The notes beneath the pieces were generated by a model. The model was not told the origin of the DNA and made no database searches. It worked only from the letters and a program-made list of their open reading frames with translations. From Neokomagataea tanensis (lineage in GTDB: Bacteria > Pseudomonadota > Alphaproteobacteria > Acetobacterales > Acetobacteraceae), in NCBI RefSeq assembly GCF_006542335.1, contig NZ_CP032485.1:405501-469500 (forward strand): a stretch of DNA of 64,000 nucleotides. Direction: 5' to 3'. The stretch's first letter is position 1, and each line of letters starts with the position of its first letter. Position numbers and translations under genes: made by a program. Below are positions 9,258 through 45,211 of this stretch, in pieces.

Positions 9258-12200
9258 TTAGGACATAGCCCGCTGGTTTAAAAGCTCTTCAACCCGACGC
9301 GCATCTTGAGCGGACAGACCCTCTCTTAACGTTGACTGGATTTTCCCAGCAGCGAATTCAACTGCCAGATCTGTCACGTAAGTTCCGAACACGTCACCCG
9401 CGACATTAACAATCGCAACTTGGTAACGCCCCTCCAGCACCAACGCGTAGCCGCGTTTCGGGTCAAGCACACCCTCAAAGCCAGCACAAAGCGGGGCATC
9501 AGAATGAACACGCGCCACGTCATGCCGTACACGACGCTGAAGAGCAGAGAGGACAACATCGCCACGCTGCGGCTGAACCAGCGCAATGTAAATCTGTCCA
9601 GCGCGCTGAAGCCCTTTCAAGAAGGCCCAACCACGAATATGCAACTCTCCGTCGGGTACGACCTCTTTCAGAGGCTCACCCACGACGCCTGTGAAGTCGT
9701 CAATGAATTGCTCTAAACGACCTTCACCATGCGAATGCAAGCCCGCTTTCTGGAACGAGGACAGTTTGATTCCTCTCAGCAAACCATCATCGTGAGCAAT
9801 ACGCTCGAAATCTTCCAGAATTTGCCCGTTGGACGGTGCAATACGCTCAATCGTCGTGACCTGCCCGCCTTCTACCTCAATCTGGTATGGCGTGAGCTGG
9901 AACGCACCTTGGCCTTGGATAACGTTAATGAGCCCAACGCGGAAACGCCCCTCACACCATTTACCGCGCAGCGCAGCTTGTCCTGAGAAACCGGATCGCC
10001 GTGGAGAATCCGCAAAGAGTTTTGCGATATCACTGCGTGTCTCACGCTGACACTCGACATAGATCGTTGGTGCGTCCGGTGCTTCACCAATCAGGACAGC
10101 AAGCATGCGCCCTGCAGTAGAAATACCGGGGAGCAGGAACCAGCCACGAATATGGAACTCGCCAGCTCCATCGAAACTGATGTCTACACCGGGGCGGAAC
10201 ACATGGTGGCAGATATCGTCCACATAGCATTCTGCACCCTGGATAGAGAACCAATCGTTGACTGGGACTGGCAACTCGACGGACAGGTCACGTTGTGTCG
10301 GTGGGTCAAAGATATGGCGTGGTGGTGCCTGATGTCTCCAACTATTATGTGGCAACAGATGGACCTGCCCTGCGTCGATACGAAGATCTGACACACCCAT
10401 TTCGCGACGTGGCAAGATTTCCTTATACAACGCAAGAAGATCGCGCGCATATTCACCGGCGTCTGTCCACAGATGAGGGCCGATGTTTTCCATCATCGAA
10501 CGGCGCAACGTCTCAGACGAACGAAGAAGTTCCAAGCGCTCCAAAACCATGCTCGGACGGTTAATCGGCACCTTAAAGCCATTCACACCATCCTCAACGC
10601 GGTCCCCCAAAGCCCCGACATCGGTCACAATCGGCAGCAGACCGTTCTGCCACGCTTCTGAAAGCGAGATGCAGTACGTTTCAGGCCATATGGACAGATT
10701 GAGCGCTACGTCAGCTGCCTTTAGCTTCTCAATATCACCCATATCGTAACGGCCATAGACCTTCACATTCGACCGTGGGACAGCGTTTAGAACAGCTTCA
10801 TACTCGGGATGAACGTAGCCGAATATATGGAAAACAAAGTGATCAGGATGCGCAATCTCAATTAAGCTCAGAATCGTGTCTGCACCCTTGGTCCGAAGGA
10901 AATTACCTACGATCGCAACGGATAGCGGACGGCCATCAAGCGGCGCATACGCCTTCGGAACAACTGGTACCGTGTTTTCAGGGCTAGGAATACCTGTGAT
11001 ACGACTAATTTTCTGATCCAGAATTGGATAAATCTCGTGCGTCAAATCGCGCGAATGCTTTGTACCAAACATTACAGCATCAACGGACCGCAGAGCCTTT
11101 GCCACAAAAGCACGGCGTGTCTGCTCGCCACCGTACTCTACATTTTCAGCGGCCTTAAGTGTGATATCGGCAGCAAGGACAGAGCGAACTTCATCCTCAA
11201 TGTAGCGCAATTCGTGGTTCAGCAGATTGTAGCGTGCGGAAACCAGCCAGAAGTCATGCGCTGAGAAAACGACGCCAGTGCCGCTCGCCTTGGCGATGAT
11301 TGGCAATGAAAGGGCATGGTGCCCCAAATGCTGGAAATGAACAATGTCGATGTTGTACTGCGCAATAACACTGGAAAACGCCATTTCTTCGGCGCCATCG
11401 CACATAACGTCCTGCCAGCCCATTTCCGGCACGTCAAAGCGGTCCAACTCTTGGCCGCTCGCCGTTGTCATCCAGCAAGAGCCGCCACGACGGAGCCAAT
11501 AGAAAAACTCTACATCGCGGCCAAGCATTGAACACAGGGCTTGCTGGTAAACTTCTACACCGCCCCATGCTTGCTCATGAATTGTCGAGTGCGTGCACAT
11601 CAACACACGAAGGCGGCGGCGGCGCTCAACCAGGGCAGCGGGTTGTTTGCGGCGGCTGAAATCCGCCCCCGTAATCTCTTGCATGCTCTGCAAGCGATTT
11701 TCGTAAAGATGCTTTTGAGCAACGGATTTCTGAGAAGCCTGAGCCGCCTTCCGACGAGCACTCTTGCTTTCTAGCAAACGAGCAACGGCTTCAACGACTT
11801 CGTCAGGCGTCCGGGCGAGACTAATCCCGTCCACTGTCTCAAAGTGCTCGCTTCCCATGCTTTCTGGCGCTTCAACCACCTGCGCCGTTCCTGCGAGGCC
11901 CAGCTCAAAGAAACGCGGCCCCGGCGCCGTCGCTTGGCTTACGTCACCATGGCTAGCGTAATCTCGGAACATCGTAAGCGTCACAGCACTCACGTTCGCG
12001 AAATCAATAAACGCTTCGTGGCTTACTGGCCGCTGTATAGCCAGAGCAGCCAGATCCGCTGGCAGAGGCGGCAGATACTCGTTGCCTGGGCAAATAAGCT
12101 TCAGACGCGCATCCGGGAAAGCGGCGATAACGCGCCGGAGCGTCTCGACACGGTTAGGCCACATCGTGCCCGCAAAGAAGATGTCGTATTCAAGCTCGTT

Positions 12201-36298: not shown

Positions 36299-37240
36299 TT
36301 ACTTGGAATCACGCCGTGCATGACGGTATCGCCGCACCAATCGTGGCAAACACAATAAGGGATGCTTCTGCTCAAATGACGATAACGCCAGATCAATACC
36401 CGTATGCCGCTGTATCTTCCACGCCAGATAGGTAGCACCATCCTTGAAGGTAAACGCTGCCTTGATCAAACGTAATACATTCCGCACTTTGCCAAAGCGC
36501 TTTATGGCGTGCCAATGCTTCACAGCCCGTCGCGTCTGCTTTTCAGAGAGCACGACAGAGTAACTGTCATTCTCCCGAGCAAAAGCTAAACCCGCACGCT
36601 GCCACGCTAACGGTAAAATCGTAGTAAAGCGGCCTTCGGCTCCTTGGAGAAGACTTTTCCCACGCCCAGACGCCTCTACCCTTAGTTCTGAGCCATAAGT
36701 CTGGGCGAATAGCGCATCCCAAAAGGCTGTAGCAGGCTTACTTCCTATGTCAGCGCCAAAAATCCCGCTCCAGAAAGCAGCTGTCGTGACACAACGGGCA
36801 ATCAACGTCAGGATATAGTCCGCAGCCTCAGCGTCTCGTACCCAAACCAGCCGCACTGGCTGACAAAAACGCGCCCATAAGGTTGTATCAGCTGAACGCG
36901 GCCCTGTTCGCTCTGCAAATTGCTTACGCGACAGCACAGCAACTTTAGCCCGGTAAGCTTGCCCCTCGTAACTATACTCCGCGTAAAACACATTTGGCGG
37001 CAGAAAATGATTTGCCAGGCGGGCACACATGCCTCCCGGCACATCACGCCCCGTTTCCGTCACCACATAAAAATCCAAAATACCATCCGGGTCCGCTTTA
37101 CGCAGCATAGACCCGTAGAACACGACACCCAAAGGTGCCGTCGACATATCCTTAACCAGATGTGCCGCAAACGCCCGTACAGCTGGAGCCACCGGCGTTA
37201 CTAATTCCGTGACGAGGTATTTTTCCAAACGATCAAGCAT
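36299..37240 (-). CDS. Tam41-like phosphatidate cytidylyltransferase (predicted)
   Basis: 313 residues from the ATG at 37240, which overlaps the stop of the lipid-kinase gene by 8 bases. An N-terminal nucleotidyltransferase fold is visible: FYGSMLRKADPDGILDFYVV, where Gly43-Ser44 and Asp56 fit the GS...D pattern. Farther on RAKVAVLSRKQF ... LWARFCQPVRLVWVRD corresponds in order and spacing to the segment K..V.S...F....W..LxGRxxxPV.....D of mitochondrial Tam41, which makes CDP-diacylglycerol from CTP and phosphatidic acid. The match is my reading, not a search. Its neighbour makes phosphatidic acid. No transmembrane helix, as in peripheral Tam41. A longer start (37339) would add a poorly conserved extension. 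Confidence 0.6.
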   Translation of the reverse strand: MLDRLEKYLVTELVTPVAPAVRAFAAHLVKDMSTAPLGVVFYGSMLRKADPDGILDFYVVTETGRDVPGGMCARLANHFLPPNVFYAEYSYEGQAYRAKVAVLSRKQFAERTGPRSADTTLWARFCQPVRLVWVRDAEAADYILTLIARCVTTAAFWSGIFGADIGSKPATAFWDALFAQTYGSELRVEASGRGKSLLQGAEGRFTTILPLAWQRAGLAFARENDSYSVVLSEKQTRRAVKHWHAIKRFGKVRNVLRLIKAAFTFKDGATYLAWKIQRHTGIDLALSSFEQKHPLLCLPRLVRRYRHARRDSK

Positions 37241-38270
37241 GGAGGAACCTAAATGCCGGGCCACTCTCCAGCAGCAACTGCCGCGATGCCGTCGGGGTAA
37301 AGACCTCACCATCCAGCACAAAGTCACTCGTTGTTTCAAGCATCATACGATGGGTTCTGCCGCTATCGTAGTCTGGGTGGCGGCGCAGCCAACGGGGCGC
37401 ACGGCCTGTCAAAAGAGCGGCAGCAGCCCGGGCCAGCGAGCCCGGCTGCGCACTTACATCCAAGTATCGTACGCCGCGTGCACCCGGCTCAGCGTCCCAA
37501 AACGGCCAGATACCACGCGATAATTGCGACAAACCTGTTGCCAAGAACATAAAGCTTTCGCCGCCGTAGGAGCGCTCTTCAGTCATAATTTTTAGAGGGT
37601 CACCCGCAAGCCAACGATCACGGCTCCGACGAAACACTAGACTGCCCACCGCACCAAGGACCGTCACCCCTACAGCCAAATCATGCGGCGCGAACCTGAC
37701 GATGGATGGAGCATGCGCAATACGAACAGCTCTAGCATACCCCGCACAGCCACCAAATAAGCCAAGGACAGGCATACGGTCGCTCTCCGGCCAAGTTAGC
37801 CGAATAGGCGTTCTAACGCTTGAGCGCATCGCACCTTGGCGCAGCCTGCGCAGCGCCTGAAAACCCCGCAGACCAAACCCAACATCATTCGCAATCAGAT
37901 TGGTATTACCCGACGCAAACACGGCGATATCTGGCAAATCATCTTCGGGGTAAACGCGGGCAATGGCTGTCAGCGCAGTGCTCACCGTCCCATCTCCGCC
38001 ATCTATAGCAATCGTCCGCACCCCACGGTCACGTAATACGCGCAGCCGGTCCGCCGTACCTTCGCGGCTATCGGACGGAATAAAATTCTCTCCCAAGAGA
38101 GATTCGGCAGCAGCCGCAAAGCCTGCGCCGCTACGATTATTACGGCGACTACGGGCGTTGTGTATCAGGGCAAAGCGCACAGAGCGGGACAATCTTCTGT
38201 CTAAGAAAAAACGGGATACGCCCCAGAAAATCTGGACTAAGCGGTATTTTTCGTGAACGCTTAAGACCAT
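37233..38270 (-). CDS. Diacylglycerol/lipid kinase family protein
   Basis: About 345 residues from the ATG at 38270; a GTG at 38315 would add 15 residues. FALIHNARSRRNNRSG is the first strand and phosphate loop of the DAGK catalytic domain, and IAIDGGDGTVSTAL (GGDGT at about 91-95) is its ATP motif. FASGNTNLIANDVG replaces the usual G(T)GNDLA loop. The C-terminal lobe ends with a beta-sandwich typical of YegS/DgkB. It probably phosphorylates diacylglycerol to phosphatidic acid. It overlaps the Tam41-like gene in the same operon, which supports a lipid role. Confidence 0.82.
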   Translation of the reverse strand: MVLSVHEKYRLVQIFWGVSRFFLDRRLSRSVRFALIHNARSRRNNRSGAGFAAAAESLLGENFIPSDSREGTADRLRVLRDRGVRTIAIDGGDGTVSTALTAIARVYPEDDLPDIAVFASGNTNLIANDVGFGLRGFQALRRLRQGAMRSSVRTPIRLTWPESDRMPVLGLFGGCAGYARAVRIAHAPSIVRFAPHDLAVGVTVLGAVGSLVFRRSRDRWLAGDPLKIMTEERSYGGESFMFLATGLSQLSRGIWPFWDAEPGARGVRYLDVSAQPGSLARAAAALLTGRAPRWLRRHPDYDSGRTHRMMLETTSDFVLDGEVFTPTASRQLLLESGPAFRFLHA

Positions 38271-38370
38271 TCCTCGAAAAGGCGGTATAGGGTTTCCACT
38301 GGCGGGGTCTAGCACAGCACAGCCCGTAGGACTACACGCTGAGTTACGAACGGAAGAAACCTAAGCCCTG

Positions 38371-39342
38371 ATGACAGAACGCCACAGCACTATGCCCCAG
38401 TCTGACACACAGCAAAGCCCGGCTACAGACATACCTGCCAGCCAGCACACTCAAAACCAGTCTTGTGTCAGAATCGCGCATCTGTCGGACCCACACCTCC
38501 CCCCTCCACCGGTCCCTTGGTCCCAAGCCTTTAACAAACGCGGCCTCAGCCTTCTTTCATGGCACAAACACCGTCGGCACGTTCATCAGGCCCCGCTCTG
38601 CGATGCCTTGGTGCAAGACATCGCCCGCACTGAAGTTGACGCCATTATGGTAAGCGGTGACCTAACAAACTTTGGTACCCCCGCAGAGTTTACTAAAGCC
38701 GCTCAATGGCTGGCTGCTCTGCCTGCACCCGCATTTGTCATTCCCGGCAACCATGACGCTATGGTCCGCCAACCCGAAGCCACAGGCCGCAGCAAATGGA
38801 TAGATTGGGCGGCTCCGCAATATCCTTATTGCCACGAACTCAACGGCGTAGCGATTATCGGCGTTAACTCAGGCGTACCGACATTGCCTTTCATGGCAAG
38901 CGGACGTGTCGGAAAGCAGCAACGCCAGCGTTTGGCGACTCTGCTCAAACGCACGCACGATGCAGGACTGTGTCGGGTCGTAATGATCCACCACCCTCCG
39001 TGCAAAGGACTCGTGCCATGGCGCAAGGCCCTGCACGACATGAAGGCCGTTACCGATGTTCTCCGCGCAGAAGGGGCAGAAATCGTCCTGCACGGACATT
39101 CACATAACGCGACACTGACCCATATTCCCAACTCCACGATACCACTTCTCGGGGTCGCATCCGCTTCCCTACAGTCCGCGAAGCCCCACCGCCAAGCATG
39201 CTGGAACGAACTGACCATTACGCCTCACGCACAAACTGCGCATAAACACTGGACCATCACACTCCAGCGCCATTGGCCCTCATTTAGCGGCCCCCATAGC
39301 GGGGTAGTAGAGAGCGCATCTTGGGAGCGTGGATACAAATGA
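38371..39342 (+). CDS. Calcineurin-like phosphoesterase (cytoplasmic)
   Basis: 323 residues with the full metallophosphatase motif series: IAHLSDPHL (metal 1), IMVSGDLTNFG, VIPGNHDAM, MIHHPPCK and LHGHSHN. No signal peptide; the first 45 residues are a polar lead. The stop TGA overlaps the lptF start by four bases (ATGA), so the three genes phosphoesterase-lptF-lptG are translated together. By motif layout it resembles the LpxH/3',5'-cyclic nucleotide phosphodiesterase group, but substrate cannot be read. Its coupling to LptF suggests an envelope-lipid role; inference. Confidence 0.85.
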   Translation: MTERHSTMPQSDTQQSPATDIPASQHTQNQSCVRIAHLSDPHLPPPPVPWSQAFNKRGLSLLSWHKHRRHVHQAPLCDALVQDIARTEVDAIMVSGDLTNFGTPAEFTKAAQWLAALPAPAFVIPGNHDAMVRQPEATGRSKWIDWAAPQYPYCHELNGVAIIGVNSGVPTLPFMASGRVGKQQRQRLATLLKRTHDAGLCRVVMIHHPPCKGLVPWRKALHDMKAVTDVLRAEGAEIVLHGHSHNATLTHIPNSTIPLLGVASASLQSAKPHRQACWNELTITPHAQTAHKHWTITLQRHWPSFSGPHSGVVESASWERGYK

Positions 39343-40487
39343 CGCCCAAACTCCATACGCTCGACCGCTACCTCCTACGGCAAATGGCACCTCCATTTAT
39401 CGTCGCGCTCGGGGCCATGCTTGTAGCGCTCCTACTTGAGCGCCTGCTCACTCTTTTCGATTATCTGGCCTCCGCAGGAAGCTCCCTCTCCACCTGTATC
39501 AAACTCCTGACGGACCTCCTGCCGCATTATTTTGGCATCGCGCTGCCGGCCTCGCTTTGCATTGCGGTCTTCCTGACCGTCCGCAGCATGAGCGACCATA
39601 ACGAAATTGACGCCATCAGAGCGGCCCGCATCTCCCTCATTCGCCTGAGCCGTCCTTTCATGTTTGTCGGCTGCGGTATCGGCCTCGCCAGTGTTTTGCT
39701 CTACGGCTATATTCAGCCTGTTGCACGCTATGACTACCGTGCCGGTTTTTACGTCGCCGAACACACAGGATGGGCCCCTCACCTTCAGGCCGGGATGTTC
39801 GCATCCACCTCCAGTAAAGCCATGATGACAGCCGATAAAGTCCGTCATGGCGGCTCCACACTCGGCCATATCTTCATCCGCGAGATTGCAGATAACGGCA
39901 CTATTCACCTGATTACAGCTGAACGCGGCCTTCTGACCGTCTCACAAAAGCATCACCGTACAGAACTAGACCTTTGGGACGGACAAATCGTCGACATTCC
40001 ACTGCAAACCAGTGAGCATTCAGCACCGCATGTCACGCATTTTGGTCATGCTGTGCGCATTATCGAACGCCAAAACCACGATACAAACTTCCGCTCACGC
40101 GGCGCAGATGAACGTGAACTTACCCTGTTTGAACTTGCCAAAGATCTGCGCTATGGCGTGCACGGTATTGAGTACCGCACCCTGCGCGCTGAGTTTGACT
40201 TCCGCATGGCGCGCGCACTTGCCATACCGTTCATTCCGCCACTAGCCGTTGCGCTCGCCATAGGCGGCAAACGCAGGCGCTCAATCTGGGGCCTTCTGGC
40301 CGTTTCAGGCATCCTTGTCGGCTTTGACCAGATATTAATGTTCGGTCATTCCTTGGCTTCTTTGGGCAAACTCCCCATTTGGTTAGCCATCTGGACCCCT
40401 GAAGCACTATTCTGTGCTGCATGTCTGGCAACACTACTTCGCCGCTCCCGTGGCTCTTGGCGCCGACGGCTCCTGCACAAAGCCTAA
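39339..40487 (+). CDS. lptF: LPS export ABC transporter permease LptF
   Basis: 382 residues from ATG 39339 in the ATGA overlap. N-terminal LHTLDRYLLRQMAPPFIVAL opens the first of six membrane helices (first three between residues about 17 and 115, last three after about 285), with the large periplasmic beta-jellyroll between. With LptG and LptB it extracts lipopolysaccharide from the inner membrane. The jellyroll here is of normal size. Starts the lptF-lptG pair, 36 bases apart. Confidence 0.9.
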   Translation: MTPKLHTLDRYLLRQMAPPFIVALGAMLVALLLERLLTLFDYLASAGSSLSTCIKLLTDLLPHYFGIALPASLCIAVFLTVRSMSDHNEIDAIRAARISLIRLSRPFMFVGCGIGLASVLLYGYIQPVARYDYRAGFYVAEHTGWAPHLQAGMFASTSSKAMMTADKVRHGGSTLGHIFIREIADNGTIHLITAERGLLTVSQKHHRTELDLWDGQIVDIPLQTSEHSAPHVTHFGHAVRIIERQNHDTNFRSRGADERELTLFELAKDLRYGVHGIEYRTLRAEFDFRMARALAIPFIPPLAVALAIGGKRRRSIWGLLAVSGILVGFDQILMFGHSLASLGKLPIWLAIWTPEALFCAACLATLLRRSRGSWRRRLLHKA

Positions 40488-40523: not shown

Positions 40524-41639
40524 ATGAACCGCTCTGCTCACTCCTCAAAAATGCCCCAGAGGCATCGCGCTGTTCTCATTCGTCATCTGAACAAAGCCCT
40601 GTTGGGGCGCGTCATGCTCTGCGGGGCAGTTCTTGTGGCCCTCATGGAATTACTGGCGCTTTTGGAGAAGACGACACCGATTTTAAACCGTCATCTCGGC
40701 GTACGCGGCTTAGCCATTTTTTCTGCTCTGCACCTTCCAGCGCTCAGCATCGACATACTCCCCTTAGCTTTCCTGATCGGGGCGCTCTTCTTTCTTACGC
40801 AACTCGCCTTATCAAGCGAGATGTCTGCTCTGCGCGCTGCAGGTTTATCGACTATCGGGCTTTACCGTTTACTGCTCCCAACAGTGCTGTTCGTGGGCTT
40901 TGCGGGTATGATTGGGCAATACTGGGTTGTGCCTGCCAGCGAAGGTGCGCTGAAACAATGGTGGAATGCCACAACCCCCATTAATGAACATGATGACAGC
41001 GACCAGCCTCTTTGGTTTCGTATGGGCGGTACGCTCATCCGCATTGAGCATATCTCCAACAGCGGCCAAACCTTAAGCGACATAACCCGCTATGACCGTG
41101 ACGCCCACGGACAGCTGACAAGCACTCAGCATGCGGACAGCCTGAATTACGCTGGGGATCACTGGGAAGAAACCGGCAACCTCACACTACAGCTTAACCC
41201 TGATCACAGCGCAGCCCACCGCATTCCGGGTGGAGCCCTTGCTCTCCCCGTATCCCCGCGCACCATTATACGCCTGACACAGGCTCAGCCTTTTCTGACA
41301 CCGGGAGAAATTTTAGACGCCCTCCACAATGGCGCCCCAGCGAGTCTCCCCCGCCCTACATACCGTATGGCGCTTTTTTCACCCCTGATCTTACCAATAG
41401 ATATGGCAACAATGCTTCTATTAGCGCTGCCAGTGATCTATATCCCACCAAGAACTGGGCTCAGAACCCCACTTCCAGTCTATGTGCTGGCAGCAGGTCT
41501 AGCCCTTGTAATCCTGCAGGGCCTGATAAACGCGTTGGGCAATGCCGGAACGCTACCGGCAGCACTGGCCGTTTTGTCAGGACCACTACCGGGCATTTTA
41601 TTCGGTATCACCTGGGTACTGCGGATGGAGGAAAAATAA
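40524..41639 (+). CDS. lptG: LPS export ABC transporter permease LptG
   Basis: 371 residues, same YjgP/YjgQ fold as LptF: three N-terminal helices (LCGAVLVALMELLALLE, LSIDILPLAFLIGALFFL and TVLFVGFAGMIGQYWVV), a periplasmic jellyroll and three C-terminal helices ending in LFGITWVLRMEEK. It pairs with LptF in the LptB2FG complex. The third gene in line, a fatty-acid hydroxylase, starts 2 bases after its stop, so lipopolysaccharide export and that enzyme share an operon. Confidence 0.88.
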   Translation: MNRSAHSSKMPQRHRAVLIRHLNKALLGRVMLCGAVLVALMELLALLEKTTPILNRHLGVRGLAIFSALHLPALSIDILPLAFLIGALFFLTQLALSSEMSALRAAGLSTIGLYRLLLPTVLFVGFAGMIGQYWVVPASEGALKQWWNATTPINEHDDSDQPLWFRMGGTLIRIEHISNSGQTLSDITRYDRDAHGQLTSTQHADSLNYAGDHWEETGNLTLQLNPDHSAAHRIPGGALALPVSPRTIIRLTQAQPFLTPGEILDALHNGAPASLPRPTYRMALFSPLILPIDMATMLLLALPVIYIPPRTGLRTPLPVYVLAAGLALVILQGLINALGNAGTLPAALAVLSGPLPGILFGITWVLRMEEK

Positions 41640-41641
41640 AT

Positions 41642-42457
41642 ATGACTGCACCCCGTTCAGGCTTACGCTTTTGGCGTAATGCAGCATCTTTGCGCACAGG
41701 CCGAAGCTTCGACTTGGGTAAGATGACCCTTCCACAACTTTGGATGGCCTATCTCACCTACCCAAGCATTCTGCTCTATTTCGCCCTGATTATCGCCTCC
41801 GCAGTTTTGACCGTTCACTTCTGGAGCGGCACCTTGCGCACGGTGCTGCCCATTCCCGCAGTCATCGCCATTTACCCAACCGCGTGGTATCTGATCCACC
41901 GCTTCGTCCTGCACAGTAAGTGGCTTTATAAAAGCCGCTGGACGTCTTCCACCTGGAAGCGCATTCACTTTGATCACCACCAAGACCCACACCTGTTGGA
42001 TGTGCTGTTTGGCTCCCCGCTCAACACCGTACCCACCATGGCAATCATCACCATGCCCGTCGGTGCGCTCATTGGCGGATTGAGTGGTATGTTTGCAGCC
42101 TTTACGACCTCGCTGGTTATGACCTGCATCTATGAATTTTTTCACTGCATACAGCACTTGGCTTACAAGCCCCGCTGGAAGTGGGTCGCGCATATCAAGC
42201 AACTGCACGTCCTCCACCACTTCCACCACGAAGACGGCAATTACGGTATAACCAATTACCTTCCGGACCGGATCTTCGGCAGCTTTTACCGAGACGCCCG
42301 CGAGCGCCCGCGCTCCCAGCATGTTTTCAACCTCGGCTACACCGTGGATGAAGCCTCGCGCTACCCTTGGGTCATGTCTCTAACAGGCTCCCCCCCAAAA
42401 GACCGACCCGACGGCGCGCGCCCAAATAAAAAAAATACGCCAGAAGCCGCCGCGTGA
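41642..42457 (+). CDS. Fatty-acid hydroxylase / sterol-desaturase family membrane protein
   Basis: 271 residues with two or three membrane pairs and the di-iron His boxes of the superfamily: HRFVLH (about 87-92), HFDHHQDPH (about 108-116), HCIQHL, and LHVLHHFHHEDGNYG near residue 195. Oxidises an acyl chain, sterol or hopanoid in the membrane. In acetic acid bacteria 2-hydroxy fatty acids and sphingolipids are known, so 2-hydroxylation of a ceramide or lipid A acyl chain is a fair but unproven guess. The start follows lptG by 2 bases; the stop overlaps the next gene start (GTGA). Confidence 0.82.
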   Translation: MTAPRSGLRFWRNAASLRTGRSFDLGKMTLPQLWMAYLTYPSILLYFALIIASAVLTVHFWSGTLRTVLPIPAVIAIYPTAWYLIHRFVLHSKWLYKSRWTSSTWKRIHFDHHQDPHLLDVLFGSPLNTVPTMAIITMPVGALIGGLSGMFAAFTTSLVMTCIYEFFHCIQHLAYKPRWKWVAHIKQLHVLHHFHHEDGNYGITNYLPDRIFGSFYRDARERPRSQHVFNLGYTVDEASRYPWVMSLTGSPPKDRPDGARPNKKNTPEAAA

Positions 42458-43239
42458 GTGCCCTCCCTGTCCTCATTCTAGCGGGCTCGCGTGATGGCGC
42501 CCAAGACCCTCTTGCCCGCTTGGGAGGCGTCTCTCACAAGGCCCTGCTTCCGGTAGCAGGACAAGCCATGCTGTCGCGCGTCCTCGCCGCAGTGAACGAA
42601 ACTCCGGCAATAAGCAGCGTTACCGTCAGCATCGAGGAACCTGAATTAATTCAGACACTTTTGCATGAGCACTCCACTCACGCGCAACCAGCCTCGGTCC
42701 TGCAATCTCAACCCTCCCCAAGTGAGAGCGTTGCTGACGCTTTGCAGGCACTCGGCACGCCATGTCTCGTCACAACCGCAGATCACGCCCTGCTTAAAAA
42801 AGAATGGATAGAAGAATTTCTGGAATACACGCAGGGATGTGACGTGGCCGCAGCCATTGCTGTGCGCCCCGTCATTGAGCGCGATGTTCCCGGCACAAAA
42901 CGAACATATATCCGCCTCTCCGATATGCATTTCTCAGGCTGTAATCTCTTTTGGCTTGGCTCCCCCAAAGCCCAAAACGTCATAACACTTTGGAACCGCC
43001 TTCAGCAGGATCGGAAAAAACCCCTGCGTATGGCGCGGACCTTGGGGTGGAGCGTACTGCTGCGCGCACTGTTCCGCAAACTCGACAGCTATACGCTCTG
43101 CAAACGGATAGAAACGCTCACCGGCGCAAAAGTACGGTTGGTCCCCCTCTCCGACGGTTGTGCAGCAGTAGACGTCGATAAACCCGTTGACCTCACCTTA
43201 GTGGAAGCGCTCTTATCAGCGCCCCCAACACAGCACTAG
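42454..43239 (+). CDS. NTP-transferase (MobA-like) domain protein
   Basis: 261 residues starting at GTG in a four-base GTGA overlap with the hydroxylase stop. N-terminal PVLILAGSRDGAQDPLARLGGVSHKALLPVAGQAML is a Rossmann-type nucleotide-binding entry of the NTP_transf_3 class, with the loop Lys (SHKALLPV) and, near 104, VTTADHALL, a metal-binding acid. C-terminal half is unlike MobA. It may attach a nucleotide to a sugar, alcohol or cofactor precursor; the cluster suggests a lipid head group, by context alone. The GT4 gene follows 15 bases later. Confidence 0.7.
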   Translation: MSALPVLILAGSRDGAQDPLARLGGVSHKALLPVAGQAMLSRVLAAVNETPAISSVTVSIEEPELIQTLLHEHSTHAQPASVLQSQPSPSESVADALQALGTPCLVTTADHALLKKEWIEEFLEYTQGCDVAAAIAVRPVIERDVPGTKRTYIRLSDMHFSGCNLFWLGSPKAQNVITLWNRLQQDRKKPLRMARTLGWSVLLRALFRKLDSYTLCKRIETLTGAKVRLVPLSDGCAAVDVDKPVDLTLVEALLSAPPTQH

Positions 43240-43254
43240 GCACACTAAGCCAAA

Positions 43255-44346
43255 ATGAAGATTGCTTACGTCATCAACTCCCTTGAATGCGGCGGGGCAC
43301 AGAGCCCTATCCCGGACATCGTCCACCTCATTCAAGAGCGCGGAGGTGACGTAACCGTCTTTGGATTAGAGGAACGCGATGGCCTTGCTATTCCGCTGCT
43401 TCGACGGGCGGGCATTCCTGTGCGCTTACGTACAGGCCGCAAAAAAGATCACATCAATGCATATCTCTGGCTAAAGCGCGAACTCAAAGCTTTTAAACCA
43501 GACGTAGTATGGACCTCACTGACGCGCGCTACCCTGCTAGGCCAAATTGTTGCCCGCCAACTCAAGGTTCCCACAGTACACTGGCAGCATTCCGCCCGCC
43601 TCAAAACGGCTAATGCGTGGCTCTTACGTCTCTTTTGCCGTGAAACGCTCCTCTGGGTCGCTGACTCTGAAACCGTTGCCCGTTTCGCCAAAAAACGCCT
43701 GAAGCTTGGCAATAATATCCTGTGTTGGCCCATTTTTCGTGCCCCACCTGATGCCCCGACTGCACGCCTCTGGCAAAAAGGCGAGATCATACAGATTGGC
43801 TCTCTTGGCCGCCTCCACAGCGTTAAAGGCTATGATGTCCTCTGCGACGCATTAGCCCTATTGCGTTCCACAAAAGAGCTCCCCCCTTTCCATATGATTT
43901 TTGCAGGAGACGGCCCGGAACGCATCGCACTGGAAGAACGTGCCCGGCGCCTTAACCTACCCGTTTCCTTCTACGGTCATTGCGAGAAGCCACTGGATTT
44001 TTTATCCACTTTGCACCTCTACCTACAAACATCACATTGGGAAGGCTTATGTGTCGCAGCCCACGAAGCGATGGCCTGCGCACTACCAATCATCACCACC
44101 CCCGCTGGCGAAATTCCGCGCAGTGTTGTTCCCGGTGAATCCGGTCTGATTGTTCCCTTTAACGATGCCGGTGCGCTAGCCGCAGCCTTGACGAGCCTCT
44201 TACGCAAACCCGCATGCCTTGGTGAAATGGGCGTACGCTCGCGCAAAATGGTTATGCAGCGCTTTGGCCCGGAAGCTTTTGCTCAATACGGTCACGCCGT
44301 TCTTGATGCTATTCCGGGTTTCAACGCTTCAAAAAACGACGCCTGA
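43255..44346 (+). CDS. GT4-family glycosyltransferase
   Basis: 363 residues, GT-B fold. MKIAYVINSLECGGAQ is the typical acceptor-domain opening, HWQHSARL follows, and the donor domain begins at IGSLGRLHSVKGYDVLCDAL (about 181-200) with FAGDGPER and the E-x7-E motif in HWEGLCVAAHEAMACALPII. No signal peptide. The last 26 bases overlap the end of the convergent beta-propeller gene. Last of the lptF-lptG-hydroxylase-NTP-transferase run; it may glycosylate a lipid. Confidence 0.85.
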   Translation: MKIAYVINSLECGGAQSPIPDIVHLIQERGGDVTVFGLEERDGLAIPLLRRAGIPVRLRTGRKKDHINAYLWLKRELKAFKPDVVWTSLTRATLLGQIVARQLKVPTVHWQHSARLKTANAWLLRLFCRETLLWVADSETVARFAKKRLKLGNNILCWPIFRAPPDAPTARLWQKGEIIQIGSLGRLHSVKGYDVLCDALALLRSTKELPPFHMIFAGDGPERIALEERARRLNLPVSFYGHCEKPLDFLSTLHLYLQTSHWEGLCVAAHEAMACALPIITTPAGEIPRSVVPGESGLIVPFNDAGALAAALTSLLRKPACLGEMGVRSRKMVMQRFGPEAFAQYGHAVLDAIPGFNASKNDA

Positions 44347-45211
44347 AGTTCATCAAATCACGCCGTGGCCCGTACCCAATACGTTTAACATCAACGAGCG
44401 TGACATCCCCAGAAGCCGACAGTGTATGCATACCATCTGGATAAGCATGTTTTAGGGTGGATGGTATGTTCAAATGCTCCTGAGGGGTCACCCGCACCTC
44501 ACCGCGCTCTAGTCCATCAATGTGGAGTAAACGGATATTTTTCCCGTACGTCCCGCGACAGTCCTGAACCGGCAACACAACTCCGGACCGGGTCACGCAA
44601 GGTGTCCCGCCGGGGCGTGCTCCAGCCCGATCTCTGTGTATAATACCCCGGTCCGTCCATGGCCCGTACAAGCTTGGCGCGGTCGAAAGCGCGAGCACAC
44701 TTTGCCGCTCTTCTTTTGTCCCCGGCGGATTCCAAAACAGCCACCACTGTCCATGCATAAAAAATGGGGTGGCATCCACCGCCGCAGCCGGAAAATCAAA
44801 TTCGGGCACACTTTCCCAACCCAGCGGGAAATTAGTCGCTCGGTACAGCGTCAAACGTCCGGAACCACTAGCCTCCGGCAGCATGTAAAACACACCTTCA
44901 TGTTTGAACACGAATGGATAAGATAAGTGCCACGGCTTTTCCAAAGCTTGGTGGCGGCGCTGCAAAACGAACTGCTGATCATAAATCAGAACATCGATAA
45001 CGCCTTTAGCGCTTCGATAATCGAAAGCTTCTGCAAAAACATACAATAAATCGCCGTGCCACATGCCGAATGGATCCGCCAGAAAGCGATGATCCCCTTC
45101 ATCCGGCAATAACGTGACCGAAACGCCATCCCAATTTTTCTGCTCCAAAAGCTCTGTGAGCGGCTCATGAAGGATGGCACTGCGCCAGTGATCCGTACGG
45201 AAAAAAGGCAT
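44321..45211 (-). CDS. GINT1_N-like beta-propeller protein
   Basis: 296 residues reading as a GH43/GH32-like five-bladed propeller. Signature stretches: FLADPFGMWHGDLLYVFAEAF, HLSYPFVFKHEGVFYMLPEA, LTLYRATNFP, DATPFFMHGQWWLFW and LSTAPSLYGPW. The same pattern is the N-terminal domain (GINT1_N) of plant glucosamine inositolphosphorylceramide transferase and of bacterial formyltransferase-linked proteins. In plants a GT64 domain follows; here the domain stands alone. It may bind or modify glycolipid sugar. No signal peptide. Its tail overlaps the GT4 gene tail-to-tail by 26 bases. The call is by pattern recognition. Confidence 0.68.
   Translation of the reverse strand: MPFFRTDHWRSAILHEPLTELLEQKNWDGVSVTLLPDEGDHRFLADPFGMWHGDLLYVFAEAFDYRSAKGVIDVLIYDQQFVLQRRHQALEKPWHLSYPFVFKHEGVFYMLPEASGSGRLTLYRATNFPLGWESVPEFDFPAAAVDATPFFMHGQWWLFWNPPGTKEERQSVLALSTAPSLYGPWTDRGIIHRDRAGARPGGTPCVTRSGVVLPVQDCRGTYGKNIRLLHIDGLERGEVRVTPQEHLNIPSTLKHAYPDGMHTLSASGDVTLVDVKRIGYGPRRDLMNFRRRFLKR

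What the first reader, a model, noticed from the sequence alone, without database searches (positions are those of the whole stretch)
36299..38270. Tam41-like CDP-DAG synthase next to a diacylglycerol kinase
Bacteria normally use the integral CdsA to make CDP-diacylglycerol; the soluble Tam41 is the mitochondrial enzyme. Here a protein with Tam41-like GS...D and LW-R-...-PV patterns is encoded with an 8-base overlap from a diacylglycerol/lipid kinase gene. Together they would make a DAG to PA to CDP-DAG salvage route in an alphaproteobacterium, the lineage close to mitochondria.
Basis: partly seen in the sequence, partly recalled or inferred. Interest (0 to 1): 0.75.

Follow-up and report, generated by a model that had tools for sequence, protein, structure and literature searches.

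The report
Tam41-like enzyme in sphingolipid cluster
A bacterial gene that resembles a mitochondrial lipid enzyme really is there, but it sits in a sphingolipid-making gene cluster and most likely activates phosphorylated ceramide with CTP rather than making the usual phospholipid precursor.

The parts
36299..37240 (-). CpgC-like, Tam41-fold nucleotidyltransferase (313 aa); proposed CTP:ceramide-1-phosphate cytidylyltransferase
37233..38270 (-). CpgB-like lipid kinase (DAGK_cat, GGDG motif), proposed ceramide kinase; start uncertain (38270 ATG or 38315 GTG)
   Evidence: adjacent on the same strand in 79 of 80 loci and 27 of 32 others
37233..37240 (-). 8-base overlap between the kinase stop and the nucleotidyltransferase start, suggests translational coupling
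38371..39342 (+). metallophosphoesterase, divergent; counterpart of CC_1158
   Evidence: PF00149 E 1.8e-16; match at E<=1e-3 in 79 of 80 loci; 41% identical to the Roseomonas cluster gene
39336..40487 (+). LptF-like permease (LptF2 type, counterpart of CC_1156 or CC_1155)
   Evidence: PF03739 E 1.1e-52; 79 of 80 loci
40524..41639 (+). LptG-like permease (LptG2 type, counterpart of CC_1155 or CC_1156)
   Evidence: PF03739 E 4.6e-60; 79 of 80 loci
41642..42457 (+). fatty acid hydroxylase / sterol desaturase family, may hydroxylate the ceramide (inference)
   Evidence: PF04116 E 1.3e-17; 76 of 80 loci
42454..43239 (+). MobA-like NTP transferase, likely counterpart of CC_1153 rather than of CpgD
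   Evidence: PF12804 E 2.3e-13; 75 of 80 loci; 45% identical to the Roseomonas 'NTP transferase domain-containing protein' that lies beside the CerS-like and LptFG genes, apart from that cluster's CpgD-like gene
43255..45211 (.). glycosyltransferase group 1 (43255-44346, +) and GINT1_N-domain protein (44321-45211, -); possible extra head-group genes, link to the pathway unproven
   Evidence: matched in 36 (GT4) and 42 (GINT) of 80 loci; loci with short flanks lower these counts

Best explanation
The gene is a cpgC-type gene and its partner a cpgB-type gene, part of a phosphosphingolipid cluster of a bacterium of the acetic acid bacteria group. The kinase phosphorylates (dihydro)ceramide to ceramide-1-phosphate; the Tam41-fold protein binds CTP-Mg in its nucleotidyltransferase domain, takes the ceramide-1-phosphate made by its coupled partner and forms CDP-ceramide plus pyrophosphate, the counterpart of PA + CTP to CDP-DAG. 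A transferase then swaps CMP for a head group, and LptF2/LptG2 export the lipid. Shown here: fold, conserved motifs, gene order, co-occurrence with serine palmitoyltransferase, presence of CdsA. Published for Caulobacter: kinase activity of CpgB and the need for CpgC in making ceramide phosphoglycerate. Inferred: CTP and ceramide-1-phosphate as the substrates of this protein, ceramide as the substrate of this kinase, export, and the identity of the later steps.
Against: No assay of any CpgC was found in the papers seen. The Caulobacter CpgC sequence was not obtained here, so orthology rests on gene order and gene content. No PF09139 match. If CDP-ceramide is the product, its user is unknown: the four genomes of the window's family have only two CDP-alcohol phosphotransferases each, which in the own genome look like PgsA and PssA. 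Some loci have no kinase match beside the gene: L076, L146, L149 and L150, where a contig end does not explain it, and L151 and L163, where it may. The own genome's Spt looks frameshifted near its C-terminus and its CerR is uncertain, so ceramide production in this strain is not certain. 6 of 39 SPT-positive genomes lack CpgC. Most of the 80 loci come from one bacterial family, so they are not independent.
Confidence: 0.62

Rival explanations
1. A real second CDP-DAG synthase: the kinase makes phosphatidic acid from DAG and the Tam41-like enzyme makes CDP-DAG, alongside CdsA.
For: Tam41, the closest solved structure, is deposited as phosphatidate cytidylyltransferase; the kinase falls in DAGK_cat; UniRef names several relatives 'Phosphatidate cytidylyltransferase', but how that name was assigned is unknown.
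Against: Occurrence and position follow serine palmitoyltransferase; CdsA is present; the Caulobacter kinase of the same gene order phosphorylates ceramide (PMC10331486, passages) and CC_1161 mutants lose ceramide phosphoglycerate (PMC11324152, passages).
Confidence: 0.12
2. A cytidylyltransferase or nucleotidyltransferase of the same pathway acting on another phosphorylated substrate (for example ceramide phosphoglycerate, or a phosphoglycerate), not on ceramide-1-phosphate.
For: Pathway membership is strong; fold similarity fixes the nucleotide chemistry better than the acceptor.
Against: In Caulobacter CC_1161 is needed to make CPG, while CpgD, which makes CDP-glycerate, is needed only to go from CPG to CPG2 (PMC11324152, PMC12275187, passages read); the gene overlaps that of a kinase likely to make ceramide-1-phosphate.
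Confidence: 0.16
3. A Tam41-fold protein that no longer does nucleotidyl transfer and instead condenses ceramide-1-phosphate with glycerate, as the first genetic model (CpgC converts ceramide phosphate to ceramide phosphoglycerate) says.
For: The published genetic model assigns the whole step to CpgC (quoted in PMC11324152); no separate transferase for the first glycerate is named in the passages seen.
Against: YGS, the aspartate D56, K99, R124, the acidic residue 185 and R187 are kept and align with Tam41 positions conserved at 90% or more; PMC11324152 itself says direct attachment seems energetically not very favourable.
Confidence: 0.07
4. An antibiotic- or tRNA-type nucleotidyltransferase unrelated to lipids.
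Against: Those matches cover about 110 residues of the catalytic domain, against 231 for Tam41; lipid gene neighbourhood.
Confidence: 0.02

Closest known systems
CpgC (CC_1161 / CCNA_01219) of Caulobacter crescentus
   Same: Same place in the same gene order: next to serine palmitoyltransferase and a lipid kinase, with LptF2/LptG2, metallophosphoesterase and NTP transferase in the cluster; described in print as bearing an InterPro domain suggesting a CDP-DAG synthase (PMC11324152).
   Different: Sequence not compared directly here; in the window's genome spt lies elsewhere and CpgA and CpgD counterparts were not found.
Tam41 (PF09139), mitochondrial CDP-DAG synthase and its Firmicutes homologue (PDB 6ig2, 6ig4, 7ecd)
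   Different: 11-12% identity; no PF09139 match; sphingolipid gene setting. The family's invariant C-terminal residues (W243, R257, L258, K260, W274, K275, H279) lie outside the profile match and were not compared with Tam41 residue by residue.
CpgB ceramide kinase (CC_1160 / CCNA_01218)
   Same: The partner is a DAGK_cat protein with a GGDG motif directly beside the nucleotidyltransferase.
   Different: No direct comparison with the Caulobacter sequence; activity untested.
CdsA (PF01148)
   Same: Proposed to do the same chemical step on a different lipid.
   Different: Integral membrane protein of unrelated fold (recalled); present separately in this genome.

Membership tests
Tam41 / PF09139 | match to the Pfam profile above its gathering score | tested here: not met
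   No PF09139 match for P0001 or in the families listed for 64 family members, nor in the whole genome (that search rang in none of its 14 control genomes).
Tam41 / PF09139 | Tam41 fold | tested here: met
Tam41 / PF09139 | catalytic-domain motifs at equivalent positions | tested here: met
   Y42/Y28, G43/G29, S44/S30, D56/D47, K99/K106, R124/R130, E185/D183, R187/R185 all conserved at 90% or more on both sides. That these are the catalytic residues is recalled, not taken from a call.
Tam41 / PF09139 | CTP:phosphatidate cytidylyltransferase activity | not testable with these tools
   Needs enzyme assay.
CpgC (CC_1161 family) | place between spt and a lipid kinase in a phosphosphingolipid cluster | tested here: met
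   75 of 80 and 22 of 32 loci have spt within 1.5 kb; kinase adjacent in 79 of 80 and 27 of 32. Met for the family; in the window's own genome, and in two Neokomagataea loci with flank (L002, L003), spt is not at the locus.
CpgC (CC_1161 family) | direct sequence homology to CC_1161 | not tested
CpgC (CC_1161 family) | required for ceramide phosphoglycerate | not testable with these tools
   Published for CC_1161 (PMC11324152, passages).
CpgB ceramide kinase | DAGK_cat domain with GGDG motif | tested here: met
   PF00781 E 3.3e-8, 33.6 bits against a cut-off of 23.6; D-G-G-D-G-T in P0002.
CpgB ceramide kinase | ceramide phosphorylation | not testable with these tools
   Needs assay.
YegS-type and related lipid kinases of NCBIfam | score above the curated cut-off | tested here: not met
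   All six models matched are below their cut-offs, e.g. TIGR00147 19.9 bits against 118.65, PRK13057 18.8 against 274.

The most novel reading that the evidence does not exclude
A large bacterial family of Tam41-fold enzymes makes CDP-ceramide, an activated sphingolipid that is the sphingolipid counterpart of CDP-DAG; in acetic acid bacteria, which retain it but have only PgsA- and PssA-like CDP-alcohol phosphotransferases, the ordinary phospholipid synthases would consume CDP-ceramide and so join sphingolipid and phospholipid head-group synthesis.
Probability: 0.3. Interest if true: 0.8.

Novelty: new variant of a known kind. Interest (0 to 1): 0.52.

Why it matters
Papers seen here describe the step by which CpgC turns ceramide-1-phosphate into ceramide phosphoglycerate as unidentified (PMC12275187, PMC13228409, passages). 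Placing this family in the Tam41 fold with conserved motifs turns the question into one direct assay: CTP plus ceramide-1-phosphate. The end product ceramide diphosphoglycerate partly supports Caulobacter viability without LPS (PMC12275187, abstract) and the genes affect polymyxin B sensitivity (PMC11324152, passages). The family is wide (4822 proteins at E<=1e-3 among the 8000 candidates scored). It would also mean that Tam41-type chemistry is not confined to CDP-DAG synthesis.

Tried and rejected

Weak or empty results: single-sequence PDB search found nothing and the profile search of the PDB gave two non-Tam41 chains at E 0.21 and 0.23; the first profile comparison with only 3 Tam41 sequences was weak (probability 1.2, P 0.044) and improved with 80 and 32 sequences (probability 15.6, P 0.0017); the same comparison with gap-rich columns left out gave probability 8.4, P 0.004. 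hhalign probabilities stay low throughout; the shuffle control and the fold carry the argument. CerR search of the own genome gave only a partial match (30% over about 108 residues, E 1.1e-9). CpgA: no match in the own genome with one query (no positive control in that call) and only two PF01066 members; having only two is not special to the window's family, since 10 of the 33 genomes have two. CpgD: the four genomes of the window's family gave only weak partial matches (best E 1.1e-5; about 50 to 120 residues) while two positive-control genomes gave E about 1e-76. A third homologue search showed no Caulobacter name. Plasmid search gave 17 records, none named Caulobacter. The 80 loci are the best 80 of 94 confirmed stretches. 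The gene counts use the best tblastn match at E<=1e-3 per locus; some loci are cut by contig ends (for example L015, L151, L163; L076 on the side where spt would be).

Full report
Observation. On the minus strand, 36299-37240 encodes a 313-aa protein (P0001). Its ATG overlaps by 8 bases the stop of a kinase gene (37233-38270, possibly starting at 38315). The kinase has a DAGK_cat domain (PF00781, E 3.3e-8) and scores far below the cut-offs of the six NCBIfam lipid-kinase models it touches. P0001 has no Pfam match over a cut-off, no NCBIfam match and no single-sequence PDB match, and PF09139 is not among the families listed for 64 members of its family, but it has 1460 homologues at E<=1e-3 and many invariant residues.

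Sequence-profile support. A profile of 80 relatives of P0001 (drawn at under 70% identity from 109 usable ORFs of 112 loci plus listed proteins) against 32 Tam41 homologues (under 85% identity) aligned collinearly over 170 columns, P 0.0017, probability 15.6. With gap-rich columns removed the score was 28.8 (P 0.004); 300 column shuffles gave mean 14.0, sd 2.6, maximum 22.4; the reversed profile gave 11.8. Positions conserved at 90% or more on both sides include Y42/Y28, G43/G29, S44/S30, D56/D47, K99/K106, R124/R130, Y182/Y180, E185/D183 and R187/R185. So P0001 is a remote homologue of Tam41 outside the present Pfam family.

Setting. Divergent from the pair lie a metallophosphoesterase, LptF- and LptG-like permeases, a fatty acid hydroxylase and a MobA-like NTP transferase. 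In 80 loci from genome records with titles (the best 80 of 94; most from one family, the Acetobacteraceae by their titles) the kinase is adjacent on the same strand in 79, and a serine palmitoyltransferase gene lies within 1.5 kb of the nucleotidyltransferase in 75 (76 have it somewhere in the locus); the four without it are three Neokomagataea loci (L002, L003 and the truncated L015) and L076, cut on that side. The one without an adjacent kinase is L076, where a metallophosphoesterase lies there instead. The closest relatives of P0001 are Neokomagataea proteins, so the window is probably from that genus or near it. In 32 further loci from unnamed alphaproteobacterial genomes the kinase is adjacent in 27 and spt within 1.5 kb in 22; two of the five without a kinase match are cut by contig ends.

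Co-occurrence. In 241 alphaproteobacterial genomes, 33 have the nucleotidyltransferase and 39 have serine palmitoyltransferase at E<=1e-100 (38 over the curated cut-off). All 33 are among the 38; the 6 SPT-positive genomes without it are G010, G055, G064, G125, G208 (under the cut-off) and G235. The hypergeometric value 7e-35 ignores relatedness; by the family labels the 33 genomes fall in 20 families.

Identity. An annotated Roseomonas mucosa plasmid gives the order with names: NTP transferase, hypothetical protein (CerS position), sterol desaturase, two LptF/LptG permeases, HIT protein, metallophosphoesterase, CDP-alcohol phosphatidyltransferase, diacylglycerol kinase family protein, the P0001 relative (hypothetical protein), a glycosyltransferase, an aminotransferase-family protein (Spt), ACP, flippase, and further on SDR, fatty acyl-AMP ligase and phosphocholine cytidylyltransferase family protein. 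This fits the published Caulobacter region CC_1152-CC_1168 as described in PMC11324152 (passages; section 9 whole): spt CC_1162, CC_1161 (CpgC), CC_1160 (CpgB, ceramide kinase), CC_1159 (CpgA), CC_1158 phosphoesterase, CC_1156/1155 LptF2/G2, CC_1154 cerS, CC_1153, CC_1152 (CpgD). That paper notes that CC_1161 has an InterPro domain suggesting a CDP-DAG synthase and proposes an NDP-activated ceramide. CpgB was assayed as a ceramide kinase (PMC10331486, passages) and CpgD as a CTP:phosphoglycerate cytidylyltransferase (PMC12275187, passages); PMC13228409 (passages) still calls the CpgC mechanism unidentified. PMC9386255 (passages) lists spt, acpR and aasR of Gluconobacter oxydans as sphingolipid genes. 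The Caulobacter protein itself was not compared.

Own genome. CdsA is present. Serine palmitoyltransferase is at C1:1602119-1603189 with 558.5-558.9 bits against a cut-off of 500, beside an ACP and an AMP-binding ligase, more than 1.1 million bases from the window's pair in contig coordinates; a CerS-like protein is at C1:2456480-2457580, E 5.4e-66. CerR is uncertain. Only two CDP-alcohol phosphotransferases were found, looking like PgsA and PssA (the PssA-like one is just under its cut-off); the other three genomes of the same family also have two, as do six genomes of other families. In 14 of the 33 genomes a PF01066 gene lies within 10 kb of the nucleotidyltransferase (my count); in the four of the window's family none does. 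No CpgA match and no convincing CpgD match in those four, against E about 1e-76 in two controls.

Mechanism. Most likely: ceramide + ATP to ceramide-1-phosphate (kinase), then + CTP to CDP-ceramide + PPi (P0001), then head-group transfer by an unidentified enzyme and export by LptF2/G2. The second step is inferred from fold, motifs, gene overlap with the kinase and the published mutant phenotype. The held library has no paper with the term 'CDP-ceramide', and none of the 20 papers shown of 24 holds both CpgC and Tam41; subscription papers are mostly not held.

Verdict. Observation confirmed; Tam41 resemblance confirmed at fold level; CDP-DAG salvage not supported; best filed as a CpgC-type, Tam41-fold enzyme of phosphosphingolipid synthesis in what looks like a shortened version of the pathway.

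Noticed in passing
window 44321-45211: Protein with the GINT1_N domain (glucosamine inositolphosphorylceramide transferase 1, N-terminal; E 7.7e-32) beside a group-1 glycosyltransferase and an inositol-monophosphatase family gene; might point to a glycosylated sphingolipid.
   Followed up: partly
L102 about 10001-10130 (own genome, spt): The Roseomonas Spt aligns to the own Spt in two pieces meeting at about L102:10126, and the family profile covers only positions 2-357 of 394: the C-terminus looks frameshifted, by mutation or assembly error.
   Followed up: no
L167 (Diaphorobacter sp. JS3051 plasmid pDCB2): A cluster with the P0001 relative, two CDP-alcohol phosphatidyltransferases, LptF/LptG and a lipid kinase lies on a plasmid typed as conjugative, near mercury resistance genes; one of the CDP-alcohol phosphatidyltransferase genes overlaps the P0001 relative by 4 bases.
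   Followed up: no
L002, L003 (Neokomagataea): Kinase, LptF and hydroxylase are 90-92% identical to the window's, while the nucleotidyltransferase, MobA-like protein and metallophosphoesterase are only 70-72%.
   Followed up: no
L102:13383-14522: 379-aa protein between the flippase and acyl-AMP ligase of the own spt operon has no Pfam match but is kept beside spt genes in two other genomes (L133, L134).
   Followed up: no
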